A DNA stretch of 64,000 nt from positions 1,581,501 through 1,645,500 of the forward strand of contig NZ_AP026867.1 in the NCBI RefSeq assembly GCF_026000115.1. The letters are read 5' to 3'. The translations under genes were made by a program, and so were the position numbers. Origin of the DNA: Aureispira anguillae. Lineage in GTDB: Bacteria; Bacteroidota; Bacteroidia; Chitinophagales; Saprospiraceae. Every line of letters begins with the position of its first letter. Position 1 is the stretch's first letter. A model generated the notes under the pieces. That model was given only the letters and a program-made list of their open reading frames with translations. It searched no databases and had not been told where the DNA came from. Shown piece after piece: positions 10,446 to 33,369 of this stretch.

Positions 10446-11255
10446 CTATTGAGTCAGTTCTTTTATAATCTTATTTAACCAACCTTGTGTTATAGCATAA
10501 CGCCTAAAGGCTAGAAATTGATTTTTTTTATCTTGGGAATCTCTTACGAATTTTTGAACTATCGTATAAATTTTTGTGCGAACTATATGGGGTAAAGTCG
10601 ATTTTTCATTTAAGATGGCTCGTATGTCATTTCTAAAACTATTCAAAATAGATCTTCTCTCGTCATTTAATGGAATTCTATCTATTTTACAATATTCTAT
10701 AGTATATGAGAATCGAGGATCATTTGATTTTATTATTCCATTCTCTTCAAATTGTATATTTCCTAGAGGCTCTGTTACCTCTGGATTCACCATCATGGGG
10801 ATTTCAATTGCATCATAATTACTGGAACTTTGGTTTATTAATTTAAGATTTTTATAACTAAAAGCAAAAGTTGCAGAGGTTCCATTAAGTTTAAAATTTA
10901 CGCCTTTATATTGATTACAAGATGAGCACGAATACAAAAGGTTATCCCATGAATATGCTAGCCAATAATATGTAGTTTTAGGTCTATAATGTTCTACATG
11001 ATATTGTTCAACTTTCCACTCACAAAATGCGCATTTCCCATTATAAATATTATTTAAAGCTTCCTTTATATCTTTAATTTTATAGCGATTATTATATAGA
11101 GGTTTATCTACATATTTACCTTTTCTTATGAGTTCTAATCTTCTTGTATGAGTAGTTCTAGGAGGACGAGGAATTTTTCCATCTGTAAAGTTTACTGTAA
11201 TTGGAATTCTGAGAGATAGAGGAACTTTTGTTATGTCTTTTTCTATTTTTATCAT
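10446..11255 (-). CDS. HNH endonuclease of PtuB/TIGR02646 type, 269 aa
   Basis: The core HNH module is clear: CAFCEWK (Cys75, Cys78), HVEHYRPK (His89), YYWLAYSWDNLLYSC and CSSCNQYKG (Cys110, Cys113, Asn114). The spacing and the HYRPK...WLAY.WDNLL..C..CN..K pattern are typical of PtuB of Septu and of the HNH effector of retron Ec78. The four cysteines bind structural zinc and His89 should be the catalytic base. It is the last gene of a three-gene leftward operon and starts one base after the ATPase stop. In Septu, PtuB cuts DNA or tRNA when licensed by the PtuA ATPase; the target here is unknown. Confidence 0.8.
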   Translation of the reverse strand: MIKIEKDITKVPLSLRIPITVNFTDGKIPRPPRTTHTRRLELIRKGKYVDKPLYNNRYKIKDIKEALNNIYNGKCAFCEWKVEQYHVEHYRPKTTYYWLAYSWDNLLYSCSSCNQYKGVNFKLNGTSATFAFSYKNLKLINQSSSNYDAIEIPMMVNPEVTEPLGNIQFEENGIIKSNDPRFSYTIEYCKIDRIPLNDERRSILNSFRNDIRAILNEKSTLPHIVRTKIYTIVQKFVRDSQDKKNQFLAFRRYAITQGWLNKIIKELTQ

Positions 11256-11256
11256 A

Positions 11257-13020
11257 TTATCCTAATTCTTCATCTATAATATTTTGGATTAATGAGTCTA
11301 TTTCATTATCAGAAATAAATGTTTCTCCTTTTTCTTTCCGTTCACTCAGCATATCTTCTAATTTCTTATTAATTTTATAAAGTAGATAGGTTTGACTGGT
11401 ATCAGAATTATTATTATTAGTATCTAATCTTGAGTCCTCTAAACCAAATAAAGGAGATGTTAACAAAGTATTAATCATCAAATGATTTAAATCTTTTCTG
11501 TAGTAAGGAGCGCTTACTCTTGTTTTTCCATCATTGGAATTTCTAAATACTCTATAAATGATAGCATCATTAGAAGCTCCTTGGATAATAGTTGGGCTAT
11601 GAGTTGTAAACATAAATTGAATATTAGGTAGTAGTTTACGTAGTTTTTCAGCTAAAGATCTTTGCCATTTTGGGTGCAAATGAAGATCAATTTCATCAAC
11701 TAAAACTATTCCATGTAATTCTTCAATATTTTTAGTTTCAGGTTGATTTTTTAAGAGACGAGAAAGTAGATCGGATATAAAAATAATAATACTTTTATAG
11801 CCTTCAGAAAGCTGATCAAAATTTAGGATTGTTCCCTTTTCTTCAAAGGTAACACCTCGACCATCTACGCTTATTTTGACGTTTTTTTCAAGAAGATTAT
11901 GAAATATTTTTTCTAAACTAGAAACAGAAAGAGAACTTTGTTGATTTTCTTTTGATGTACCTAAACTAAGTTCTAGATATTTTTGATGTTTTAACCAAGA
12001 AACAGGGTTAGTTAAAGTTTGATTATTATCAAAAAGAGACATAAAACCATATTCCTCTGGATCATCTGTTGAATATCTTCCTCGGTGGGTTCCATAGGCT
12101 AAAAAGTTATTTAAAAATCCTACATTTTTTTTCGCATATACTTTGTTTCTATCATCAATTCCTATTAACTCCATTCTTTTATTATTTTTGATAATATCAA
12201 CAACTTTTCCAGTTTTTTCTTTATTCATCTCATTTACAATGAGGTGTCTATTGAAAGCAAGATAAATAGCCATTAAGATTAGAGATTTACCATCTCCATT
12301 TTCTCCTAAAAAATAAACCTCTTTAGCCCCCTCTATATCTTTTAAATTTACATCTTCTACAGAAAAGAAATTTGATATATGAACAGCATCAATGAAGCTA
12401 CTTCTAACTACTTTTATGCCCTCCAGCCAATCTTTAAATTGGGTTTTAGAAACGCTAAGAGCTTTATAAAAATCATTAGCATAACAAATGGCATAAAATT
12501 CAGATTGCGTTGGTTTACGTTTTAACAATCTAGTAATTCTTTCTTCTAAAACTTGTTTAAATAACTTCCCAACGTAAAGATTTTGAAATATTGGTGTAAA
12601 ATCATAAGGTACTTTATCTTCTCTTCTTAAAAAAGGAGCAGCAGCACCAGATTCAATTAAAGCACTCCTTATATTTGTATATTGTTTTCCATTTTCAATA
12701 GTAAATACGCCTTTCATATTTCCTTCAGAGTATTTATTCGCAAATGAAGCTATAATATCACCGTGAGTAAATAATACACAAAAGAGTGCAAAAAGAGATT
12801 TTTCTTTAGGATGGTTTTGGATTTCGAGCCAATAATCAGGTAAAGGGTCTTTAAGAGAATTTACCCCAAGAAAAGATCTAAGGATGGGTTCATCTATTTT
12901 AGCTTCTTGCTTTTTAAATTTATAAAGTGTTTCTTTATCATATACAACATCCATTACTTGAACTATATCATATTTAGTCCACGATGTTTTTAGTTTTGAA
13001 AAATCTACATCTACTAGCAT
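11257..13020 (-). CDS. AAA/ABC-type ATPase (PtuA-like) with extra N-terminal domain, 587 aa
   Basis: An ABC/SMC-like ATPase: Walker A GENGDGKS at 239-246, a signature-like LSEGYKS, Walker B with catalytic Glu in GIVLVDEIDLHLHP, and an H-loop FTTHSPTI. These mark the AAA15/21 group that includes PtuA, RloA and OLD ATPases. Unlike a typical PtuA, whose Walker A is near the N-terminus, about 200 residues precede the ATPase core; that region has no motif I recognise and may be a sensor or DNA-binding domain. The gene is sandwiched in the operon (2 bases after the methylase, 1 base before the HNH gene), so the three products probably act as one complex. No TOPRIM domain is seen, which argues against OLD. 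Confidence 0.8.
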   Translation of the reverse strand: MLVDVDFSKLKTSWTKYDIVQVMDVVYDKETLYKFKKQEAKIDEPILRSFLGVNSLKDPLPDYWLEIQNHPKEKSLFALFCVLFTHGDIIASFANKYSEGNMKGVFTIENGKQYTNIRSALIESGAAAPFLRREDKVPYDFTPIFQNLYVGKLFKQVLEERITRLLKRKPTQSEFYAICYANDFYKALSVSKTQFKDWLEGIKVVRSSFIDAVHISNFFSVEDVNLKDIEGAKEVYFLGENGDGKSLILMAIYLAFNRHLIVNEMNKEKTGKVVDIIKNNKRMELIGIDDRNKVYAKKNVGFLNNFLAYGTHRGRYSTDDPEEYGFMSLFDNNQTLTNPVSWLKHQKYLELSLGTSKENQQSSLSVSSLEKIFHNLLEKNVKISVDGRGVTFEEKGTILNFDQLSEGYKSIIIFISDLLSRLLKNQPETKNIEELHGIVLVDEIDLHLHPKWQRSLAEKLRKLLPNIQFMFTTHSPTIIQGASNDAIIYRVFRNSNDGKTRVSAPYYRKDLNHLMINTLLTSPLFGLEDSRLDTNNNNSDTSQTYLLYKINKKLEDMLSERKEKGETFISDNEIDSLIQNIIDEELG

Positions 13021-13022
13021 AA

Positions 13023-14222
13023 CTATATTGGTCTTGCAATAATCAAATATTCTTTAACTTCCCTTGATTTATCTTCAGATCTCCCCATTGTACTATGAGT
13101 GTAATCAACAGCTTTTGAATGTACAATGTATTCATTTTTAAAAATTTTTGTTGCTATATTTAGTATCTGTTCTAAAGAAATCATTCCATTATTACTATAA
13201 CTTAGTATAAGTTTTGAGTTCTTTCTTTTTATTTTCTCAAACATTACTTCAAAAGCCCCAATAACTTCTGTCCTTTTACAAAATGGAGATTGATGTCGAT
13301 CGGTTCTATATCGTCCTTTAAATAGAACCTCAGGATAATCATACTTAACTAATGTTTCTAATACGTGGTAAAATCGAGAATAATGGACAAAGGCATAGGG
13401 AGGGTCAGCATATACTAGAGTACCTTTAGGAATAATATCTAAGCAATCTCTGTAATCTAGAGAAGTTATTACATGGTTAAATTTATTAGACTCTATTGAT
13501 TCTATTAGTTCAATAAGCTTTTTCCTAAAATATGGAAGTATTTCTTTTCTACGATATATAATAATATCCTTCATAGATGCTATATTGTTTGCATCTCGAT
13601 ATTGAGCATAATGTCCTGTGCTTTGTGCATTATATGCCATTGCAAACATTAAGCTAGAAAGTATTGGATAATAAGCAGGTGATTTAATGTATTTTTCTGC
13701 CGCTGCTCTTAATCCATCAATCCATAAACATTGTTCAAATGACCAATATGTGCCAGAATAGTTCTTAATAAATAGAAAATGTTTGGTGTTTTTAAAATCA
13801 GTATTGATTAGTTCTTGCTGCTGTTTTTCTATTATATTAAATTCGTCTAGAGACATTTCTATTGTATAATCAAAAACTAAATGAGGATATAATTTTTTAA
13901 TTTTATCAACATGATTTTGAGCTAATTTCACTACATCATTTATTAAGTTTTTAAATTCAATTGAATCATAATTTCCAAGATATGTTTTTGATAGAATAGC
14001 TGAGTATTTTTGAATATCATTTGAATGCATTGTTGCAGAATGACCTAAAGAACCACTTAAAACACTTGTTCCTGCAAATAAATCACATATATTTTCTCCT
14101 TCGTATATTTCATTAATAGAATCTCCTAAGTATGCCAAGAGTTTTCGTTTTGATCCCATATATTTTATAATATGGGGAACTTCTAATTTATAATCTATTG
14201 TGTGTATGTGTTGTTGATCCAA
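13023..14222 (-). CDS. D12-class adenine DNA methyltransferase, 399 aa
   Basis: N-terminal KYMGSKRKLL and CDLFAGTSVLSGSL form motifs X and I, and YADPPYAFVHYSRFY (DPPY at 273-276) is an intact catalytic motif IV for adenine N6 methylation. The family resembles solitary and type II/III-associated D12 enzymes. Translation starts at a TTG (14222); the only nearby ATG (codon 22) would cut into the SAM-binding motif. It is the first gene of an operon with the ATPase and HNH nuclease, suggesting that host DNA is marked and the ATPase-nuclease pair restricts unmarked DNA. A 21-bp perfect inverted repeat lies 60 bp upstream. Confidence 0.85.
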   Translation of the reverse strand: MDQQHIHTIDYKLEVPHIIKYMGSKRKLLAYLGDSINEIYEGENICDLFAGTSVLSGSLGHSATMHSNDIQKYSAILSKTYLGNYDSIEFKNLINDVVKLAQNHVDKIKKLYPHLVFDYTIEMSLDEFNIIEKQQQELINTDFKNTKHFLFIKNYSGTYWSFEQCLWIDGLRAAAEKYIKSPAYYPILSSLMFAMAYNAQSTGHYAQYRDANNIASMKDIIIYRRKEILPYFRKKLIELIESIESNKFNHVITSLDYRDCLDIIPKGTLVYADPPYAFVHYSRFYHVLETLVKYDYPEVLFKGRYRTDRHQSPFCKRTEVIGAFEVMFEKIKRKNSKLILSYSNNGMISLEQILNIATKIFKNEYIVHSKAVDYTHSTMGRSEDKSREVKEYLIIARPI

Positions 14223-14280
14223 TATATTTATTTTTTGCTCTTAAAAAACAATATGATTAAAAAATATTCTAAAATTAAAC

Positions 14281-14327
14281 TTTACACTAAAAAAAATAAA
14301 CCATGCGTTTATTTTTTTTAGTGTAAA
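14281..14327. repeat. Perfect 21-bp inverted repeat upstream of the methylase operon
   Basis: Arms 14281-14301 and 14307-14327 are perfect complements (TTTACACT-A8-TAAAC), with a 5-bp spacer CATGC. It sits 59 bp upstream of the methylase start. It could be a terminator isolating the operon, an attenuator, or an operator; the A8/T8 blocks in both directions suit a bidirectional terminator. Confidence 0.7.
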
Positions 14328-14644
14328 AATAAAAACATAAAGATACTTAATTGAGGAGATTTTGCATTAATTTTTAATTTTTGTTTTAAATATTTTTAAA
14401 GTATAATTTAAAGTCTTTTTTTACAAATTCAGTATATAATTGACGGCATTAAGTAAAAAGTTGAAGGATAAAAAATGAAACTTATCTCAGAGATTTTTAA
14501 AGAAAAAAAAGTATATAGAATATTTATATTTTTTTTGTTTTGTGTAATCTTGTCAATTGATTAATAAAAAGATAAAAGCTATCTTTTACGTAACAATTTT
14601 GAAGTAAACTAACGAAGTTGTTTAAGAACGTTGTTGATTTGCGA

Positions 14645-14763
14645 GATCAAAACTAGCGGTTATCGGGCAAAGCTCGTTTTTTTGTTTCGTAGCTGGAAAC
14701 TATGAGGCAGAAAATAGCTGTCGACCCGATGGCTGCTATGGTTATATTGGAGGTTTTAAGATC
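14645..14763 (+). ncRNA. Structured RNA candidate between integrase and defence operon
   Basis: On the plus strand, 14654-14667 pairs along all 14 positions with 14725-14738, including three G-U pairs that would be mismatches on the other strand. It closes a junction of three hairpins: CAAA/TTTG, CGTAG-(CTGGAAA)-CTATG at 14688-14704 and GGCAG-(AAAATAG)-CTGTC at 14706-14722. An outer GATC-AAAAC / GTTTT-AA-GATC pairing extends it. The overall cloverleaf and the CTGGAAA loop, identical to a tRNA-Ser(GGA) anticodon loop, look tRNA-like, but there is no T-loop. It is richer in GC than its surroundings and has no coding potential. Confidence 0.5.
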
Positions 14764-14848
14764 ATCTTTAAACAATTTCAACTAGTATATGTTTAGGAAT
14801 AATGAAAAGTGAAAAGAACTGTATTTGATACCGTTTCAATCTTAAGTG

Positions 14849-16015
14849 CTACCAATCCACCCCATCCAAGGCATCATTAACCAACTTATTAGACAAATGC
14901 AAATAGCCCATAGTCGTTTCAATTTTAGAATGCTGTAAGATCGCCTTTAAAATATGAATGGGCACTTTAGAGGCTAAGTGCGTAGCAAAAGTATGGCGAC
15001 CAACATGGCTCGTGATCGTTTTGGGAATGGCAGCCAAAGCAGCCAGCTCCTTGAGGGTACGATTAAAATACTGGTTGGTGTATTTATGAAAGATCGGCTC
15101 CTCTTCAGCGCCCTCTTGGATGATTCTATATTTATAGATTAACGCTTCGGGTTTTCGCTTGTGCAACTTATACAAAGGCAGTAAGAGCTGCTTGCTGGTC
15201 TTTTTGGCCACAAGATTTAAGATTAGCCCCTCCTTATCCTGATCGATGTCCTTATGGCGTACAGCGCAAGTATCAGAAAAGCGCAAGCCCGTATAACAAG
15301 AGAAAAGAAACATATCCCGAATCAGCTCCAGATAAAATTCATCCTGTTTAAAGGTCAAGGCTTCTAAGCGTTGCACCTCGTCTGTAGATAAGACCGTTCG
15401 CTCTGTGGGTAAAGAACCAGGTTTAAAATTAAGATAAGGGTTTTTGTTGCCATCAAAGGTTCCTCTTTTAATAGCAAGATTAATGTATTTACGTACCTGC
15501 TTATGATGGGTGAAAACTGTATTAACGTGTAGTTTTTGCTTATAGAGAAACTTATCAAAATTCTCAATCAAATTATAAGTCAGCTCTGAAAACTGAATAT
15601 CCTTTTGAAAGCGTACCCAATGATTAAAAGCTGTTTTGTGCTTTTTTTTGGTTTCTTTGGTCAGCTTGGTATCGTTTTCCATCTCATATTTCCAAAAAGC
15701 CGTAAAGGACTGCACATCTTCGTATTTAAAATACTCCTCTAGTTGCTCCAAGGTCATGGAGCCGTGCTTCTTGATCCAATCCAAGGTATAGACCTCTAAT
15801 TCGTCTAGTTGCCGCCTTATTTCAGCATTGTACTGGAAACTGTGGGGATGGTTGATGACCATATTGCCCTTATCGCTCCATTGGGAAGGGGTAAGGTAGA
15901 TGCCAGTAGAAAAATATTTTCTTTTAGCATTTAAATAGGCTCTTATTTGGACGAGTGCCGTGCCGTCCTTTCTTAGTTTATTTTTAAAGTTATAAACAAC
16001 TACAAATTGGATCAT
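14849..16015 (-). CDS. Tyrosine recombinase/phage integrase, 388 aa
   Basis: A Bacteroidota-type integrase: N-terminal arm-binding domain (about 1-85, containing RKDGTALVQIRAYLNAKRK), SAM-like core-binding domain (about 105-185), and catalytic domain with Arg245 (YTGLRFSD), a lysine near 271, His337-x-x-Arg340 (HVGRHTF), His362 (LQHSK) and nucleophile Tyr371 (MGYLHLS). All catalytic residues are present, so it should be active. It lies 430 bp from the 3' end of tRNA-Arg and is transcribed away from it, the normal position for a gene integrating at that tRNA. GTAACAAA repeats between gene and tRNA are likely arm-type sites. Confidence 0.92.
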   Translation of the reverse strand: MIQFVVVYNFKNKLRKDGTALVQIRAYLNAKRKYFSTGIYLTPSQWSDKGNMVINHPHSFQYNAEIRRQLDELEVYTLDWIKKHGSMTLEQLEEYFKYEDVQSFTAFWKYEMENDTKLTKETKKKHKTAFNHWVRFQKDIQFSELTYNLIENFDKFLYKQKLHVNTVFTHHKQVRKYINLAIKRGTFDGNKNPYLNFKPGSLPTERTVLSTDEVQRLEALTFKQDEFYLELIRDMFLFSCYTGLRFSDTCAVRHKDIDQDKEGLILNLVAKKTSKQLLLPLYKLHKRKPEALIYKYRIIQEGAEEEPIFHKYTNQYFNRTLKELAALAAIPKTITSHVGRHTFATHLASKVPIHILKAILQHSKIETTMGYLHLSNKLVNDALDGVDW

Positions 16016-16120
16016 GATTTATCTTTTTTTAAATGTTTGTAAACTGATTAACAATAATCATTCTAAAAAGAAACCATGAAAGCGAAGAAACAAGACCGAA
16101 TCAACATACCCTAAAAATCA

Positions 16121-16339
16121 AGGGTAACAAACGAGTAACAAAAAACAGCGATGAATTGTCACTCAAGAACAGCAAAAAAAGATAGAATAGAACTAAAAAA
16201 GTTTGAAACAGCGATGTAAACTAATTTAGACGATTTTTATTTTTCCAATAAAAAGAGCAAAAAGCTCTAAAAAATGGGTAACAAACGGGTAACAAAAAAG
16301 TGCCCTTACGTGCCCTGTGAGGCTCTAGGCTTTGTTACC
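16121..16339. repeat. GTAACAAA repeats, probable integrase arm-type sites
   Basis: GGGTAACAAACGAGTAACAA at 16122-16141 and GGGTAACAAACGGGTAACAA at 16276-16295 each contain two GTAACAAA units 11 bp apart; a fifth unit is inverted at 16331-16338. Such clusters flanking an attachment core are the binding sites of the integrase N-terminal domain. Confidence 0.6.
16254..16268 (-). terminator. Small hairpin between the arm-type sites
   Basis: AGAGC-AAAAA-GCTCT; on the minus strand it is followed by a T-rich stretch. It may be a second terminator for the tRNA transcript or protect the integrase from read-through. Confidence 0.4.
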
Positions 16340-16370
16340 GAAAAAAATCAAGTTCAAAATCAAAAGTGAT

Positions 16371-16406
16371 AAAAAAAAGCTAGAACCCCGATGGTTACTA
16401 GCTTTC
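16371..16406 (-). terminator. Rho-independent terminator downstream of tRNA-Arg
   Basis: On the minus strand AAAGCTAG-T-AACC, loop ATCGG, GGTT-CTAGCTTT followed by a run of eight T. It lies about 40 bp past the tRNA 3' end and ends its transcript. Confidence 0.75.
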
Positions 16407-16414
16407 AAAATTTC

Positions 16415-16434
16415 GTATGTCAACAAATGTAGAC
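16415..16434 (-). promoter_or_regulatory. Copy of the control-region dyad operator at the attachment end
   Basis: On the minus strand GTCTACATTTGTTGACATAC matches the 8758 and 8799 sites at 19 of 20 positions. It lies 8 bp from the tRNA 3' end. A shared site suggests that the repressor or excisionase binds both the control region and the attachment site. Confidence 0.7.
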
Positions 16435-16442
16435 AAATATAG

Positions 16443-16516
16443 CGCCCACAACAGGGTTCGAACCTGTAACCTCTGGCTCCGGAAACCAACACTCTATCCA
16501 GTTGAGCTATGCAGGC
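16443..16516 (-). tRNA. tRNA-Arg (anticodon CCG)
   Basis: A 74-nt cloverleaf: acceptor GCCTGCA/TGTGGGC with two G-U pairs, D-arm GCTC...GAG, anticodon loop TTCCGGA giving CCG, and T-arm ACAGG-TTCGAAC-CCTGT. CCA is not encoded. Its 3' end faces the integrase and is the likely attachment site of the element. Confidence 0.95.
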
Positions 16517-30090: not shown

Positions 30091-31536
30091 ATGAAAGACC
30101 CTATAATGTTTAATCCAATATTAGAAGAGCTAGGTACTTCTATTGATGGTTATGAGCTCTATTCAAAAGCTTTTGAATTAATGGTAGCACAGCGAACGGC
30201 TTTGATTAATGACGATTGGGAGCAGTTAGAAAAACTAACTAAAAATGGATTGTATCAGGCATTTGCCAATTGGCAGATGTTGTATAAACAACCTACTAGT
30301 AAGCCCCTTCGTTCTTTTAACGATTTGGCGCAAAGGATGAAAAAGGATTTAGAAGGTTATTTGGCAACAGAAAATGATCCCACATCAATTGCCCGAAAAT
30401 TAAAAGCGCAAGTTCTTGCTGCAATTCCAGATATAGATGCTGCGAGTTTAAAAAAGGTGGAAGAGTTAGACTTGGATTACTTTTTTGAGGAAGATTTAGC
30501 GGCCTTAGATGATGCGCAAATAGAGGATGATAACATCCGAAAAGGAATAGAAGGAACTGTTGGGCTGGCTGCTAAAAGCATTATAGCATTGGGGCAGGTT
30601 TCTTTTTATACCTATTCAGCCCTTGCTAAAGAAGAAAATTATGAAATCTATGATTTTAATGTCTTGCTAAAAAACATCCAAGCAGCCCTAAAAACAATAG
30701 AACAGGACTTAATGCTAATCTTGCGTACCATTTATGCCAATCAATTGACAGGAACGGCAGCTTCTTTAAATGCACAAAAATTTATCTCAAAACTAGAAAA
30801 TTGGGTTCCCAAATTGGGGAGAATGCAGGCAATCAGTAGGAATTATGCCCTATTTCTAAAAGAAAAGAAAAAGGGAACGAAGGCAGAACAAATGGGGAGA
30901 CTCTCAGCCATAGGGGGAAACTTGTTAAGAGCTATTTATACAACATTTACGGCTGTTTATTATTGCTCGCTAGAAGAAAAATTAACCGTTAAAAGTGAAA
31001 AAAATCAGCAATTCATCAAGCAAACACCAAAAGTTGGTTTTGAATTTTCTTTTCCAAATGGAAAGAATGTAGAATTGGCTAAACTCAAAGAAGAGCAAGA
31101 TGGTAACTATGTGGAAATTGCAGGTTTTGTAAAATCAATATCAACAAGACGGGATGCAGACGGAAAACTACTGAGTCATCTGCTTTTAGAAGATCCATCG
31201 AGTGGAGCAGAGATAGATGTTGTTGCGATTTATGCGCATTTGGTACATCTTGGAGTACACGGAGGTTCTTATTGTCAATTAAGTGGCTCTTGGAGAAAAG
31301 CATCGGCTGTCAATATGGGAAATCCAGCGGTAGAAATTGAGAAGTTAGCCATTAATAAATTGGCGAAAGAATCGTGGGTGGTTCTATTCTTTGATTTAGT
31401 AGACCAATTTATAGATCGATGGTCTGGAGGATTGAATCTTCAATTTGGGATAGCTCCTCATGTGTCAGCTTTTGAAGGGGATAATGAGTCTTCTATTTTA
31501 GGCGCAGGGGAACTGATTTTTCAACCAATTATTTAA
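30091..31536 (+). CDS. Unknown protein with OB-fold-like C-terminal region, 481 aa
   Basis: Not recognised. About residues 1-310 are helical and soluble (VEELDLDYFFEEDLAALDDA is strongly acidic). Residues about 340-405 read like an OB fold: YVEIAGFVKSISTRRD, SHLLLEDPSSGAEIDVVAIY, then GSYCQLSGSWRKAS, the strand pattern of nucleic-acid-binding OB domains. A hydrophobic glycine-rich end follows. It is the first gene of a three-gene operon with a small basic protein (20 bp downstream) and a TGT/DpdA-like enzyme, so a role in presenting a nucleic acid to that enzyme is a reasonable guess. Confidence 0.6.
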   Translation: MKDPIMFNPILEELGTSIDGYELYSKAFELMVAQRTALINDDWEQLEKLTKNGLYQAFANWQMLYKQPTSKPLRSFNDLAQRMKKDLEGYLATENDPTSIARKLKAQVLAAIPDIDAASLKKVEELDLDYFFEEDLAALDDAQIEDDNIRKGIEGTVGLAAKSIIALGQVSFYTYSALAKEENYEIYDFNVLLKNIQAALKTIEQDLMLILRTIYANQLTGTAASLNAQKFISKLENWVPKLGRMQAISRNYALFLKEKKKGTKAEQMGRLSAIGGNLLRAIYTTFTAVYYCSLEEKLTVKSEKNQQFIKQTPKVGFEFSFPNGKNVELAKLKEEQDGNYVEIAGFVKSISTRRDADGKLLSHLLLEDPSSGAEIDVVAIYAHLVHLGVHGGSYCQLSGSWRKASAVNMGNPAVEIEKLAINKLAKESWVVLFFDLVDQFIDRWSGGLNLQFGIAPHVSAFEGDNESSILGAGELIFQPII

Positions 31537-31556
31537 CCAACTAAAACTTTAATAAA

Positions 31557-31901
31557 ATGGCAACTCCATGTGATTCTTTAATCTCAAATTATGCAAACAA
31601 GCTCAAGGTTTATAATCAAAAAAAGAAAACGTATCAAAAGGAAAAGCTTAGAAGAGAAAACCTGAGAACGAGTTATAATTTATATTGTTTAGGGCGGAAC
31701 TACCACGGTAATCCAGTGCTTTTTAGGGGGAGAGACGATGCAATGAATTGTTTTGCAACCCGAATTGTGATATGGTGGAATAGTGGAAAATATAAAGCAG
31801 CTAAAACGGCTTTAGACAAAGCAGAGAAAGCCCTTAAAGCAGCAGAAAAGAAAATGAAAGCTTGCATGAACAATCATAAAAATTTTTACATAAAAAAGTA
31901 A
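31557..31901 (+). CDS. Small highly basic helical protein, 114 aa
   Basis: Unrecognised. The N-terminal (KLKVYNQKKKTYQKEKLRRE) and C-terminal (KTALDKAEKALKAAEKKMKA) parts are basic amphipathic helices; the centre has three aromatic/cysteine positions (YNLYCLGRNYHG, NCFATRIVIWWNSG). The charge suggests binding to RNA, DNA or another operon product. It sits between the OB-fold-like gene and the TGT-like gene, 20 bp from each, so co-expression is almost certain. Confidence 0.6.
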   Translation: MATPCDSLISNYANKLKVYNQKKKTYQKEKLRRENLRTSYNLYCLGRNYHGNPVLFRGRDDAMNCFATRIVIWWNSGKYKAAKTALDKAEKALKAAEKKMKACMNNHKNFYIKK

Positions 31902-31923
31902 CTGTTGTAAACCCATTTGATGG

Positions 31924-33369
31924 ATGAAAAAAATTCCCAAATATAAGCGAGACGAATTTACATTCGTCTCCAATTTAAGCCAATACACCGCTAACGATAA
32001 GTATCCGAATACTTACCAAAGGGATGCTTATTTGCTTTCAGAACACTATACCAATGCTAGAACTGTAGACTTGGCTCGTAAGGTGAAAAAAAGAAGAAAC
32101 CTATTGATTAGTGACAATGGGAATTATTCTAGAATGAAGGCGGTGGCGAAACAATATGAACAGGGGGGCTTATTGTTGTTGCGACAAGCAAAAAAAGAAC
32201 AACAGCAATATGGGCAACTTTCTAATGAAACCCGACTAGCACGCCAACAATTGATGCGAGAAATTGCTCAGTCCTGCCAAAAGCAAGTAGAAGAAACAAA
32301 TTATAAAAAGGTAATTCAAGATCAATTGCTCATTCGGCCTGACTATTTGATAGGAATGGAAGACTTGACAATTCCTGTACTGATGTTGTGCCATTTGATG
32401 CATCCTATTTTTCAGCCACAGGCTTTAGCCATCCTTGATTATCAGAACAATACATTTCAGTATGTTAAAGATCAGCAGAGCGGTAGGTATGGCTCAAAGC
32501 AAGGGTTAGAAACGGTTAATAATTTTACAGTATTGCATGCTTATGATTACGATTCTGCTTACCAAGCTGGTAAAAATGCGCTTAACCTCGCTAAAGATGG
32601 GCTTGCAATTAGTTATGGAGGTCCTATGCACAGCAGAAGGTGGATTGATTGTTTGCGTATTGGAGGAAATAAAATTCAGTTGAGCGAAAAATTGCCAGAA
32701 GCCTATCTCATAGCTCAAACAATTACACAGGGGGCTATTAATGGGCACCCGACAAATATCCCTTTTCATATATTAGGAGTTGGAACGCCAATTTTAATTG
32801 CACTTATTGGGTATCAACTAAGGCATTCTAAAGCCATAAGTATTGATTCAACAGCACCTTTTAAGGATGCTTTTATAGGCAAATTATACGGTTATAAAAA
32901 TGCCTATCTAAAAATGGATATGTTTAAATTAGTGGCTTATTGTCTTATTCAAGATGTTCCTTTTGAAGATAAATCTCCTTTTTACCAGTCTTTTGCCCAA
33001 AAATACGAACACGATTGGAAGGGCTTGCGAGATAAGTTAGGAGTTCGTCCCAATAATACCGTCAAAGAACTAGCAAGTAAATTGAGGGAAAGAGGAGATT
33101 GGTTGCAGGATTATTTGCCTTTTTTTACTCCAATAACAGGAACCTTAGAGGCCGCTTTTTTGCAAGACTTACGCATCGCACGGGCAGGATATAATTATTG
33201 GGTTTTAAAACAAATTTGTCGAAAAGTAAGGGCAAAAAGGAGCGATGAAAATGCTTTTAAGAGATGGATAGAACGCCAGATTGACCAGTATACTAAAACA
33301 GCAAGTTCTAAATGGGCCAAGGCGGTCAATTTTGCTTATCTATTGACAGAAGGACATCGAATGGTTTGA
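31924..33369 (+). CDS. Divergent tRNA-guanine transglycosylase / DpdA-like enzyme, 481 aa
   Basis: TGT-superfamily features: LISDNGNYSRM (Asp64, at the place of the TGT catalytic Asp in DSGGFQ), ISYGGPMHSRR (near 230, the GGLAVG pocket), and FHILGVGTP...ISIDSTAPFKDAFIGKLY (GVG at 285-287, Asp308 at the place of the nucleophile in GVGxP...FDCVxPTRxARxGxL). The Zn-binding CxCxxC...H of canonical bacterial TGT is not present, and the sequence resembles DpdA, which inserts 7-deazaguanine into DNA, more than QueA-pathway Tgt. Members exchange guanine for a 7-deazaguanine in tRNA or DNA. No precursor-synthesis or other dpd genes are near. The function of this branch is open. Confidence 0.65.
   Translation: MKKIPKYKRDEFTFVSNLSQYTANDKYPNTYQRDAYLLSEHYTNARTVDLARKVKKRRNLLISDNGNYSRMKAVAKQYEQGGLLLLRQAKKEQQQYGQLSNETRLARQQLMREIAQSCQKQVEETNYKKVIQDQLLIRPDYLIGMEDLTIPVLMLCHLMHPIFQPQALAILDYQNNTFQYVKDQQSGRYGSKQGLETVNNFTVLHAYDYDSAYQAGKNALNLAKDGLAISYGGPMHSRRWIDCLRIGGNKIQLSEKLPEAYLIAQTITQGAINGHPTNIPFHILGVGTPILIALIGYQLRHSKAISIDSTAPFKDAFIGKLYGYKNAYLKMDMFKLVAYCLIQDVPFEDKSPFYQSFAQKYEHDWKGLRDKLGVRPNNTVKELASKLRERGDWLQDYLPFFTPITGTLEAAFLQDLRIARAGYNYWVLKQICRKVRAKRSDENAFKRWIERQIDQYTKTASSKWAKAVNFAYLLTEGHRMV

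What the first reader, a model, noticed from the sequence alone, without database searches (positions are those of the whole stretch)
30091..33369. Three-gene operon with a divergent TGT/DpdA-like transglycosylase and two unknown partners
The 481-aa product of the last gene keeps the TGT-superfamily catalytic frame (Asp64 in LISDNGNYSRM, GVGTP, and Asp308 in ISIDSTAPFKDA...GKLY), but lacks the CxCxxC zinc site of Tgt. It is preceded at 20-bp spacings by a small basic protein and a protein with an OB-fold-like end. DpdA-type enzymes insert 7-deazaguanine into DNA as self-marking, yet none of the other dpd genes is here. A minimal base-modification pathway (DNA or unusual RNA), possibly defence-linked, would be new.
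Basis: partly seen in the sequence, partly recalled or inferred. Interest (0 to 1): 0.85.

Follow-up and report, generated by a model that had tools for sequence, protein, structure and literature searches.

The report
TGT-family enzyme with unknown partner proteins
This gene trio encodes a branch, apparently not yet described, of the enzymes that swap guanine bases in tRNA or DNA; relatives in distant bacteria keep it beside the same unknown partner protein and often a small cysteine-bearing protein, so its unknown target could reveal a new kind of base chemistry.

Summary
In detail: three same-strand ORFs (481, 114, 481 aa), 20 and 22 bp apart. Protein 3 has no meaningful Pfam, NCBIfam, PHROGs, PADLOC or PDB sequence hit, yet belongs to the tRNA-guanine transglycosylase (TGT) superfamily. 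A motif pattern run over the species genome collection matched 101 stretches; of the 80 returned, 12 are relatives. With them AlphaFold gave pLDDT 89; Foldseek's first 26 PDB hits are all TGTs (best Z 26.2 over 315 residues). The nearest sequence found is a PDB DNA-guanine transglycosylase (7ui4; hhalign P 3.9e-5; 0 of 300 shuffles as good). Asp64 and Asp308 are kept in 14 of 14 members. The window's protein lacks the TGT zinc site; 5 of 13 members have CxCxxC exactly there. Protein 1 homologues lie near the enzyme in 13 of 14 loci from several phyla, fused in Enhygromyxa. The small protein varies, but 6 of 11 share an exact C-39-C…C-38-C spacing, suggesting a cysteine-clamped helical hairpin. 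A real module, not described in the papers I could search. Substrate (DNA, RNA, or a base on the small protein) and any defence role are untested. Best guess: DpdA-like guanine exchange on nucleic acid.

The parts
30091..31536 (+). gene 1: 481-aa partner protein, N-terminal part that looks helical and a C-terminal part that looks OB-like (by eye); core partner of the enzyme
   Evidence: homologues in 13 of 14 family loci; no match at a family cut-off in Pfam, none in NCBIfam, PHROGs, PADLOC
31096..31365 (+). gene 1, approximate OB-like stretch (residues ~336-425) holding the three residues invariant in 11 homologues, G388, G392, G399
   Evidence: weak PDB hit 3f1z E 0.22: inference
31557..31901 (+). 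gene 2: 114-aa basic protein, possible Cys-clamped antiparallel helical hairpin (C5, C44, C65, C103)
   Evidence: 39 and 38 residue Cys spacing exact in 6 of 11 partner proteins tested; hairpin is inference
31924..33369 (+). gene 3: 481-aa TGT-superfamily enzyme, DpdA-like motifs
32113..32115 (+). Asp64 (DNGN motif; aligned with the DSGA Asp of phage DpdA), predicted general acid/base
   Evidence: invariant 14 of 14; aligned
32359..32364 (+). Glu146-Asp147 (GMEDL), predicted base-recognition acid (Asp156 region of Zymomonas TGT by motif order; that numbering is recalled)
   Evidence: invariant 14 of 14
32536..32538 (+). His205, aligned with the His of the PDB DNA-guanine transglycosylase (VAHG)
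   Evidence: 13 of 14; aligned
32767..32790 (+). HILGVGTP base-pocket motif (residues 282-289)
32845..32847 (+). Asp308 (SIDSTAP), predicted covalent nucleophile
   Evidence: invariant 14 of 14; aligned with Tgt and DpdA Asp
32968..32985 (+). residues 349-354 (D-K-S-P-F-Y), the place of CxCxxC in the sister clade
   Evidence: three Cys in 5 of the 13 members that cover it

Best explanation
A conserved module, probably spread horizontally (inferred from its scattered occurrence), built round a catalytically competent TGT-superfamily enzyme of a new family, nearest in sequence to DpdA (DNA-guanine transglycosylase). Shown: TGT fold of the model, invariant pair of catalytic Asp and base-pocket motifs, near-constant association with protein 1, frequent association with a small protein of fixed Cys spacing. 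Inferred mechanism: protein 1 (OB-like end) holds the nucleic acid; Asp308 attacks C1' of a guanosine and releases guanine through a covalent intermediate; a substitute base (or another acceptor) takes its place with Asp64 as acid/base; the small protein in the variable slot directs or uses that modification. DNA is the likelier nucleic acid because the sequence matches a DNA-guanine transglycosylase better than tRNA Tgt and this copy has lost the zinc site.
For: AF2 with 11 natural sequences: mean pLDDT 89.3, pTM 0.87. Foldseek: the first 26 PDB hits are all TGT entries (E 1.6e-7 to 8.2e-5), the next, non-TGT, E 0.019; VIA-align Z 26.2, rmsd 3.1 A, 315 residues to 1iq8 archaeosine TGT, about 23 to bacterial TGT; the 50 rows shown are all TGTs; viral hits include one annotated phage TGT, E 2.7e-5. 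hhalign of the family profile with the printed segment of 7ui4_A 'DNA-guanine transglycosylase': score 41.3, P 3.9e-5, lining up H205, HILGVGTP/HLLGIARP and SIDSTAP/SIDSTTP; 0 of 300 shuffles (best 25.4) and 0 of 31 other window proteins (best 21.2) reach it. Asp64, Glu146, Asp147, His282, Asp308 invariant in 14 of 14; CxCxxC in 5 of 13. Protein 1 near the enzyme in 13 of 14 loci, in one frame with it in Enhygromyxa. The genome's housekeeping Tgt is elsewhere.
Against: No substrate or product is shown. hhalign against Tgt and phage-DpdA profiles is weak (P 0.01 to 0.1), and plain HMMER against the 7ui4 segment gives only 4.8 bits over 44 columns (best of 2000 shuffles 3.4). Only 6 of 13 carriers have a strong QueC, so a 7-deazaguanine donor is not guaranteed. 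A nucleic-acid base exchange does not by itself explain why a small, sequence-variable protein travels with the enzyme. The OB fold of protein 1 is unproven.
Confidence: 0.48

Rival explanations
1. Protein-directed chemistry: as with Cap10 of type IV CBASS, the TGT fold has been turned to a protein partner. It would bind, install or remove a nucleobase on the small protein (N-terminus or clamp cysteines), protein 1 being the scaffold.
For: Cap10 is described as a TGT-family enzyme remodelled to bind an N-terminal 7-amido-7-deazaguanine on its partner (PMC11996544, abstract). 10 of 11 small partner proteins have a Cys within the first 10 residues (L265 counted from its internal MAYDC start, or from the long start) and 6 of 11 keep an exact Cys spacing although their sequences differ. 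Cap10-CdnD (9ntn) is in the Foldseek list (rank 32, E 0.035).
Against: The fold is much nearer to canonical TGT than to Cap10. No QueC-like (Cap9) or CD-NTase gene in the trio. The slot holds a Cys-free protein in L262 and larger proteins in L259 and L260. The catalytic residues of base exchange are kept.
Confidence: 0.25
2. Effector-control module: the protein in the variable slot is a toxin or effector (hairpin with hydrophobic middle, calpain-domain protein, acidic multi-domain protein), and protein 1 plus the TGT-like enzyme switch or license it by a base-linked signal.
For: Variable slot with constant core; tandem calpain-domain proteins with small companions in L259; tandem paralogues with a shared N-terminus and different C-termini plus a MORN protein in L260; hydrophobic stretches (19-residue mean 1.5 to 2.2) in the small proteins of L261, L263, L264, L266, L267.
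Against: No Pfam hit for the small proteins tested (window, L261, L263 and one of L264); the window's own small protein has no such stretch (0.51); the slot genes of L259 and L260 could be unrelated neighbours.
Confidence: 0.15
3. tRNA-directed enzyme: a specialised TGT acting on a tRNA position or a subset of tRNAs.
For: Closest solved folds are tRNA enzymes; the sister clade keeps the zinc ligands used by tRNA TGTs.
Against: Housekeeping Tgt is present separately; the sequence is nearer a DNA-guanine transglycosylase (P 3.9e-5) than the genome's own Tgt (P 0.07) or a Tgt set (P 0.012).
Confidence: 0.1
4. Chance motifs in an unrelated orphan protein.
For: No family or PDB sequence hit; the single-sequence model was useless (pLDDT 35.5).
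Confidence: 0.02

Closest known systems
DpdA, DNA-guanine transglycosylase (PDB 7ui4; phage 9g type)
   Same: H…HxLGxxxP…SIDSTxP catalytic block and D-x-G motif; hhalign P 3.9e-5 to a 7ui4 segment
   Different: no NCBIfam DpdA (NF041059) match; no preQ0 gene or other dpd gene in the trio; constant partner is protein 1
Bacterial and archaeal Tgt (Pfam PF01702)
   Same: fold (Z 23 to 26), two catalytic Asp, GVGTP; zinc ligands in the sister clade
   Different: no PF01702 match; window copy has no zinc site; separate housekeeping Tgt in the genome
Cap10 of type IV CBASS
   Same: TGT-family protein tied to a protein partner in a small operon
   Different: no CD-NTase or Cap9 in the trio; fold match weaker than to Tgt; sequences not compared
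TGT of HerA/BREX-related 'BRC' systems (PMC12839542, passages)
   Same: TGT homologue in a multi-gene conflict-type cluster in which DpdB and DpdC were not detected
   Different: no PglZ, HerA, GNAT or STAND gene in the trio; sequences not compared

Membership tests
TGT superfamily | TIM-barrel TGT fold | tested here: met
   pLDDT 89.3; Z 26.2 to 1iq8; first 26 PDB hits all TGT
TGT superfamily | pair of catalytic Asp in the two known motif positions | tested here: met
   14 of 14; register by hhalign (only 122 significant)
tRNA Tgt, PF01702 | CxCxxC zinc site | tested here: not met
   absent in the window protein and 7 others, present in 5 of the 13 members covering the site
tRNA Tgt, PF01702 | profile match over cut-off | tested here: not met
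   (only the separate housekeeping Tgt)
DpdA, NF041059 | profile match | tested here: not met
   no NCBIfam match for protein 3; no match in G000
DpdA | sequence homology above chance to a DNA-guanine transglycosylase | tested here: met
   (one segment, residues 108-318, of one chain)
DpdA / Dpd system | dpd partner and preQ0 genes alongside | tested here: not met
   on the three operon genes; flanking genes only read by eye
DpdA | inserts 7-deazaguanine into DNA | not testable with these tools
   needs LC-MS of DNA
Type IV CBASS Cap10 | CD-NTase and QueC-like Cap9 in the operon | tested here: not met
   on the three operon genes
Type IV CBASS Cap10 | binds a base-modified partner N-terminus | not testable with these tools
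   needs a complex structure or mass spectrometry
BRC system TGT | HerA/FtsK, PglZ and STAND genes in the cluster | tested here: inconclusive
   not seen among the trio or its listed neighbours by reading; no profile search of most flanking genes

The most novel reading that the evidence does not exclude
A new class of nucleobase-protein system: a TGT-fold enzyme with protein 1 attaches, exchanges or reads a nucleobase on a Cys-clamped helical hairpin protein, whose variable middle is the working end (immune effector or toxin). Base chemistry of RNA and DNA modification would then be used on a whole family of protein carriers outside CBASS.
Probability: 0.22. Interest if true: 0.93.

Novelty: new variant of a known kind. 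Interest (0 to 1): 0.74.

Why it matters
TGT-fold enzymes are known to act on tRNA, on DNA and, in CBASS, at a protein end. A further deep family with intact catalytic residues, its own near-constant partner and a small protein constrained in cysteine spacing but not in sequence predicts a base-modification or base-protein reaction not yet described, in bacteria of several phyla. It gives a short list of genes and residues with which to test this directly.

Tried and rejected
Relatives were first sought with protein 3 alone and not found: genome contigs by six 8-residue patterns (none of 57 stretches confirmed), viral contigs (motif region only, none of 4), plasmids and phages, 394 other phylum genomes, 8 other genus genomes (one hit at E 0.005), 395 other order genomes, partly the same (21 others with a hit at E up to 0.1, best 9.8e-4). 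Of these weak hits I read frames of L002, L029, L030, L032 and L034; none carries the motifs, though for L029 and L032 (minus-strand hits) one search printed the plus strand only. The loci held at that time, both strands, were also scanned with a motif expression, which rang only in loci of the window's own gene. Hits without a locus were not read. Gene 1: none in 99 other family genomes or 8 other genus genomes. Gene 2: only hits at E 0.16 and 0.85 in the genus, not followed.

A single-sequence AF2 model (pLDDT 35.5) was discarded. A motif pattern in viral contigs gave 3 unrelated frames; the A3 profile in viral contigs gave none confirmed of 39 stretches. L266 and L260 enzymes and L263 gene 1 in plasmids, and L260 in phages: no enzyme or gene 1 match, only the extra N-terminal domain in 2 plasmids. 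A DpdA family search of 296 phylum genomes gave 23 with a match at E up to 0.1, none over the cut-off; one search read 6 of 24 loci as Tgt and misread frames of others; (loci listed) 13 of L119-L132 proved to be Tgt, and L119 is a different DpdA-like protein. PDB sequence searches with A3, A5 and A6 gave no informative match (globins for A5, a designed bundle for A6). Whether the extra N-terminal domain is a glycosylase-like fold could not be tested; only a sub-threshold DUF6308 hit (E 0.0022 in L223, 0.074 in L207). No Rfam match over threshold around the operon; promoter and terminator scans 20 against 13.6 expected and 4 against 2.8. In one search, 101 stretches matched but 80 were returned; I examined those 80, 12 are true relatives, 21 were never seen. 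In some searches the L265 small protein was cut at its C-terminal end by mistake; one search repeated the test on the whole protein and from its internal start: still no pattern, so 6 of 11 stands.

Papers: searches showed no description of this trio; I saw listings, abstract starts and, of five papers, passages or the abstract. The library lacks most subscription papers.
Full report
Observation. The window has three + strand ORFs at 30091-31536, 31557-31901 and 31924-33369, with gaps of 20 and 22 bp. None of the three has a match at a family cut-off or meaningful score in Pfam, NCBIfam, PHROGs or PADLOC, and protein 3 has no PDB sequence hit. The housekeeping Tgt lies elsewhere in the genome.

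Finding relatives. Protein 3 alone found none in 394 other phylum genomes, 8 other genus genomes or 395 other order genomes (weak hits, those read were not relatives), nor in plasmid, phage, viral or 8-mer genome scans. A degenerate DNA pattern for H-x-x-G-[VA]-G-x-P-(18)-D-S-[TSA]-x-P across the species genome collection matched 101 stretches; 80 were returned and examined; 12 are true relatives: Flavobacteriales, Crocinitomicaceae, Reichenbachiella and Prolixibacteraceae, Rubritalea, Desulfosediminicola, a gammaproteobacterial, a deltaproteobacterial and a proteobacterial assembly, a Myxococcota assembly and two Enhygromyxa. Names are those of the record titles; the phyla (Bacteroidota, Verrucomicrobiota, Desulfobacterota, Proteobacteria) are recalled, except Myxococcota for Enhygromyxa. 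A profile search of 377 genomes of the Enhygromyxa phylum had 4 hits, 3 already known, adding one divergent member. Each of the 12 carrier genomes has one copy at E up to 0.001. The family looks rare and scattered; the pattern was strict, so its true size is unknown.

What protein 3 is. With 11 sequences (alignment A3, 26 to 50% identity to the window protein) AlphaFold2 gave mean pLDDT 89.3 and pTM 0.87. Foldseek against the PDB: the first 26 hits are TGTs, E 1.6e-7 to 8.2e-5; the first other fold is at 0.019; Cap10 (9ntn) is at rank 32, E 0.035. VIA-align: Z 26.2 with archaeosine TGT 1iq8 (3.1 A over 315 residues), about 23 with bacterial and human TGT; the 50 rows shown are all TGTs, lower rows were not seen. 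Among viral models, 12 reach E 0.001, one of them annotated as a TGT (phage Motura, E 2.7e-5). By sequence, comparison with a Tgt set (15 rows, one a duplicate) and a DpdA set (90 rows) is weak (P 0.01 to 0.1), but the best local alignments fall in order on the known motifs. Against the printed segment of one PDB chain labelled DNA-guanine transglycosylase (7ui4_A; that this is a bacterial DpdA is my knowledge), hhalign gives P 3.9e-5 over residues 198-318; none of 300 shuffles and none of 31 other window proteins comes near (best 25.4 and 21.2 against 41.3). Plain HMMER on the same segment is much weaker (4.8 bits; best of 2000 shuffles 3.4).

Active site. In 14 of 14 members Asp64, Asn65, Gly66, Glu146, Asp147, His282, Gly285, Gly287, Asp308, Ser309, Pro312 and Asp315 are invariant; Asn67, His205 and Pro289 are kept in 13 of 14, the divergent member differing. 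The triad CxCxxC is at residues 349-354 in 5 of the 13 members that cover the site (Myxococcota assembly, Enhygromyxa L267, deltaproteobacterium, proteobacterium, divergent member) and absent in the window protein and 7 others. Asp308 as nucleophile and Asp64 as acid/base follow from the TGT mechanism as generally known; they are not shown here.

Partners. Homologues of protein 1 lie near the enzyme in 12 of 13 loci and at the divergent one: 13 of 14. Five of them trained the first profile (window, L261, L263, L265, L269); the other eight are independent hits. In ten of the eleven loci with separate genes the gap is under 0.9 kb or none; in L260 it is 3.75 kb. In the exception (L268) the contig ends 512 bp after the enzyme. 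In Enhygromyxa L267 enzyme and protein 1 form one 998-residue frame, protein 1 at the C-terminal end; in L270 the frame looks like a deletion derivative of the same. The order gene 1, small gene(s), enzyme holds in 7 of 14 (window, L261, L262, L263, L264, L265, L293) by my reading.

The small protein. In 10 of 14 loci a small or coiled-coil ORF (99 to 319 aa, helical by eye) sits beside or between the two genes. The sequences hardly resemble each other, but six of the eleven (window, L261, L263, L266, L267, L269) share a C-(39)-C … C-(38)-C spacing exactly; (39,38) is the commonest spacing pair in the set (6 proteins, next 3), and shuffling each of the six gave it in 0 to 25 of 5000 trials (for L266 an internal ATG was taken as start). 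The five without it are L262 (no Cys), both L264 proteins, L265 and L293. The simplest reading is two antiparallel helices of about 38 residues clamped at both ends; no structure was predicted. The middle is hydrophobic in several, not in the window's protein. In L259 and L260 the slot holds larger proteins, among them two calpain-domain proteins and acidic paralogues; whether these belong to the system is open.

Mechanism. See best explanation. Shown: fold of the model, catalytic residues, partner conservation, Cys spacing. Inferred: base exchange on nucleic acid, DNA preferred, OB-like end as nucleic-acid holder, small protein as director or user. QueC (PF06508) matched in 12 of 13 carriers over the cut-off; strongly in 6 (E 1.8e-60 or lower), weakly and over part of the profile in 6 (best E 2e-7 to 1.8e-4), not at all in 1. 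The window's genome is among the weak ones; one of its matches is a 210-residue QueC-like ORF outside the operon (L292:2686-3318; PADLOC QueC E 4.4e-4). So the incoming base, if there is one, need not be preQ0.

Comparison with what is known. PMC6884629 (passages): DpdA2 is not detected with DpdA in PSI-BLAST, and 76 phages carry DpdA without synthesis genes, so a lone divergent DpdA has precedent. PMC11996544 (abstract only): Cap10 is a TGT-family protein that binds a base-modified partner. PMC13279940 and PMC13329287 (passages): the QueC-like Cap9 conjugates a deazaguanine to a protein N-terminus, and the same is proposed for QatC. PMC12839542 (passages): a TGT with GNAT in HerA/BREX-related clusters. 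None of these passages describes the trio here.

Verdict. A real new family and module of the TGT superfamily; substrate and biological role open; defence is an analogy.

Noticed in passing
window 10446-16516: Septu-like PtuA/PtuB pair (E 4.6e-50 and 8.1e-39) with a type II methyltransferase-like gene (E 1.4e-33), then a gene that reads like a tyrosine recombinase and tRNA-Arg: probably an integrated defence element, about 14 kb from the finding.
   Followed up: partly
L259, L260, L261, L264, L265 (N-terminal ~220 aa of the enzyme): Five of 14 members carry an extra, well conserved N-terminal domain (NNSxxGxSKxLHFxxPxxYPxWDS) with only a weak DUF6308 hit; it also stands alone on plasmids of Photobacterium sp. 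GJ3 and Salinimonas iocasae, in the latter after a RES-domain gene.
   Followed up: partly
L259:3351-7996: Two tandem calpain-domain proteins, each followed by a small acidic protein, directly after protein 1: looks like a duplicated effector cassette.
   Followed up: partly
L260:11273-14977: Tandem acidic proteins with a like N-terminus and different C-termini, plus a MORN-repeat protein and a hydrophobic protein, between protein 1 and the enzyme; resembles effector and immunity pairs.
   Followed up: no
L269 versus window: The window's gene 1 is nearest L269's (27%) while its enzyme is far from L269's (26%) and near the Bacteroidota-type ones (44-50%): core partners may have been reshuffled.
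   Followed up: no
L262:11120-11740: A TIR-domain-like protein (PADLOC SAVED_TIR E 9.9e-11, ThsB 8.4e-10) lies about 1.1 kb after the enzyme in Rubritalea.
   Followed up: no
window 31501-31527 and gene 1 homologues: Several gene 1 proteins end in a GAxExxFxP-like tail; others lack it. It could be a docking tail.
   Followed up: no
L292:2686-3318: A lone, divergent QueC-like ATP-pyrophosphatase in the window's genome.
   Followed up: partly
   Followed up: no
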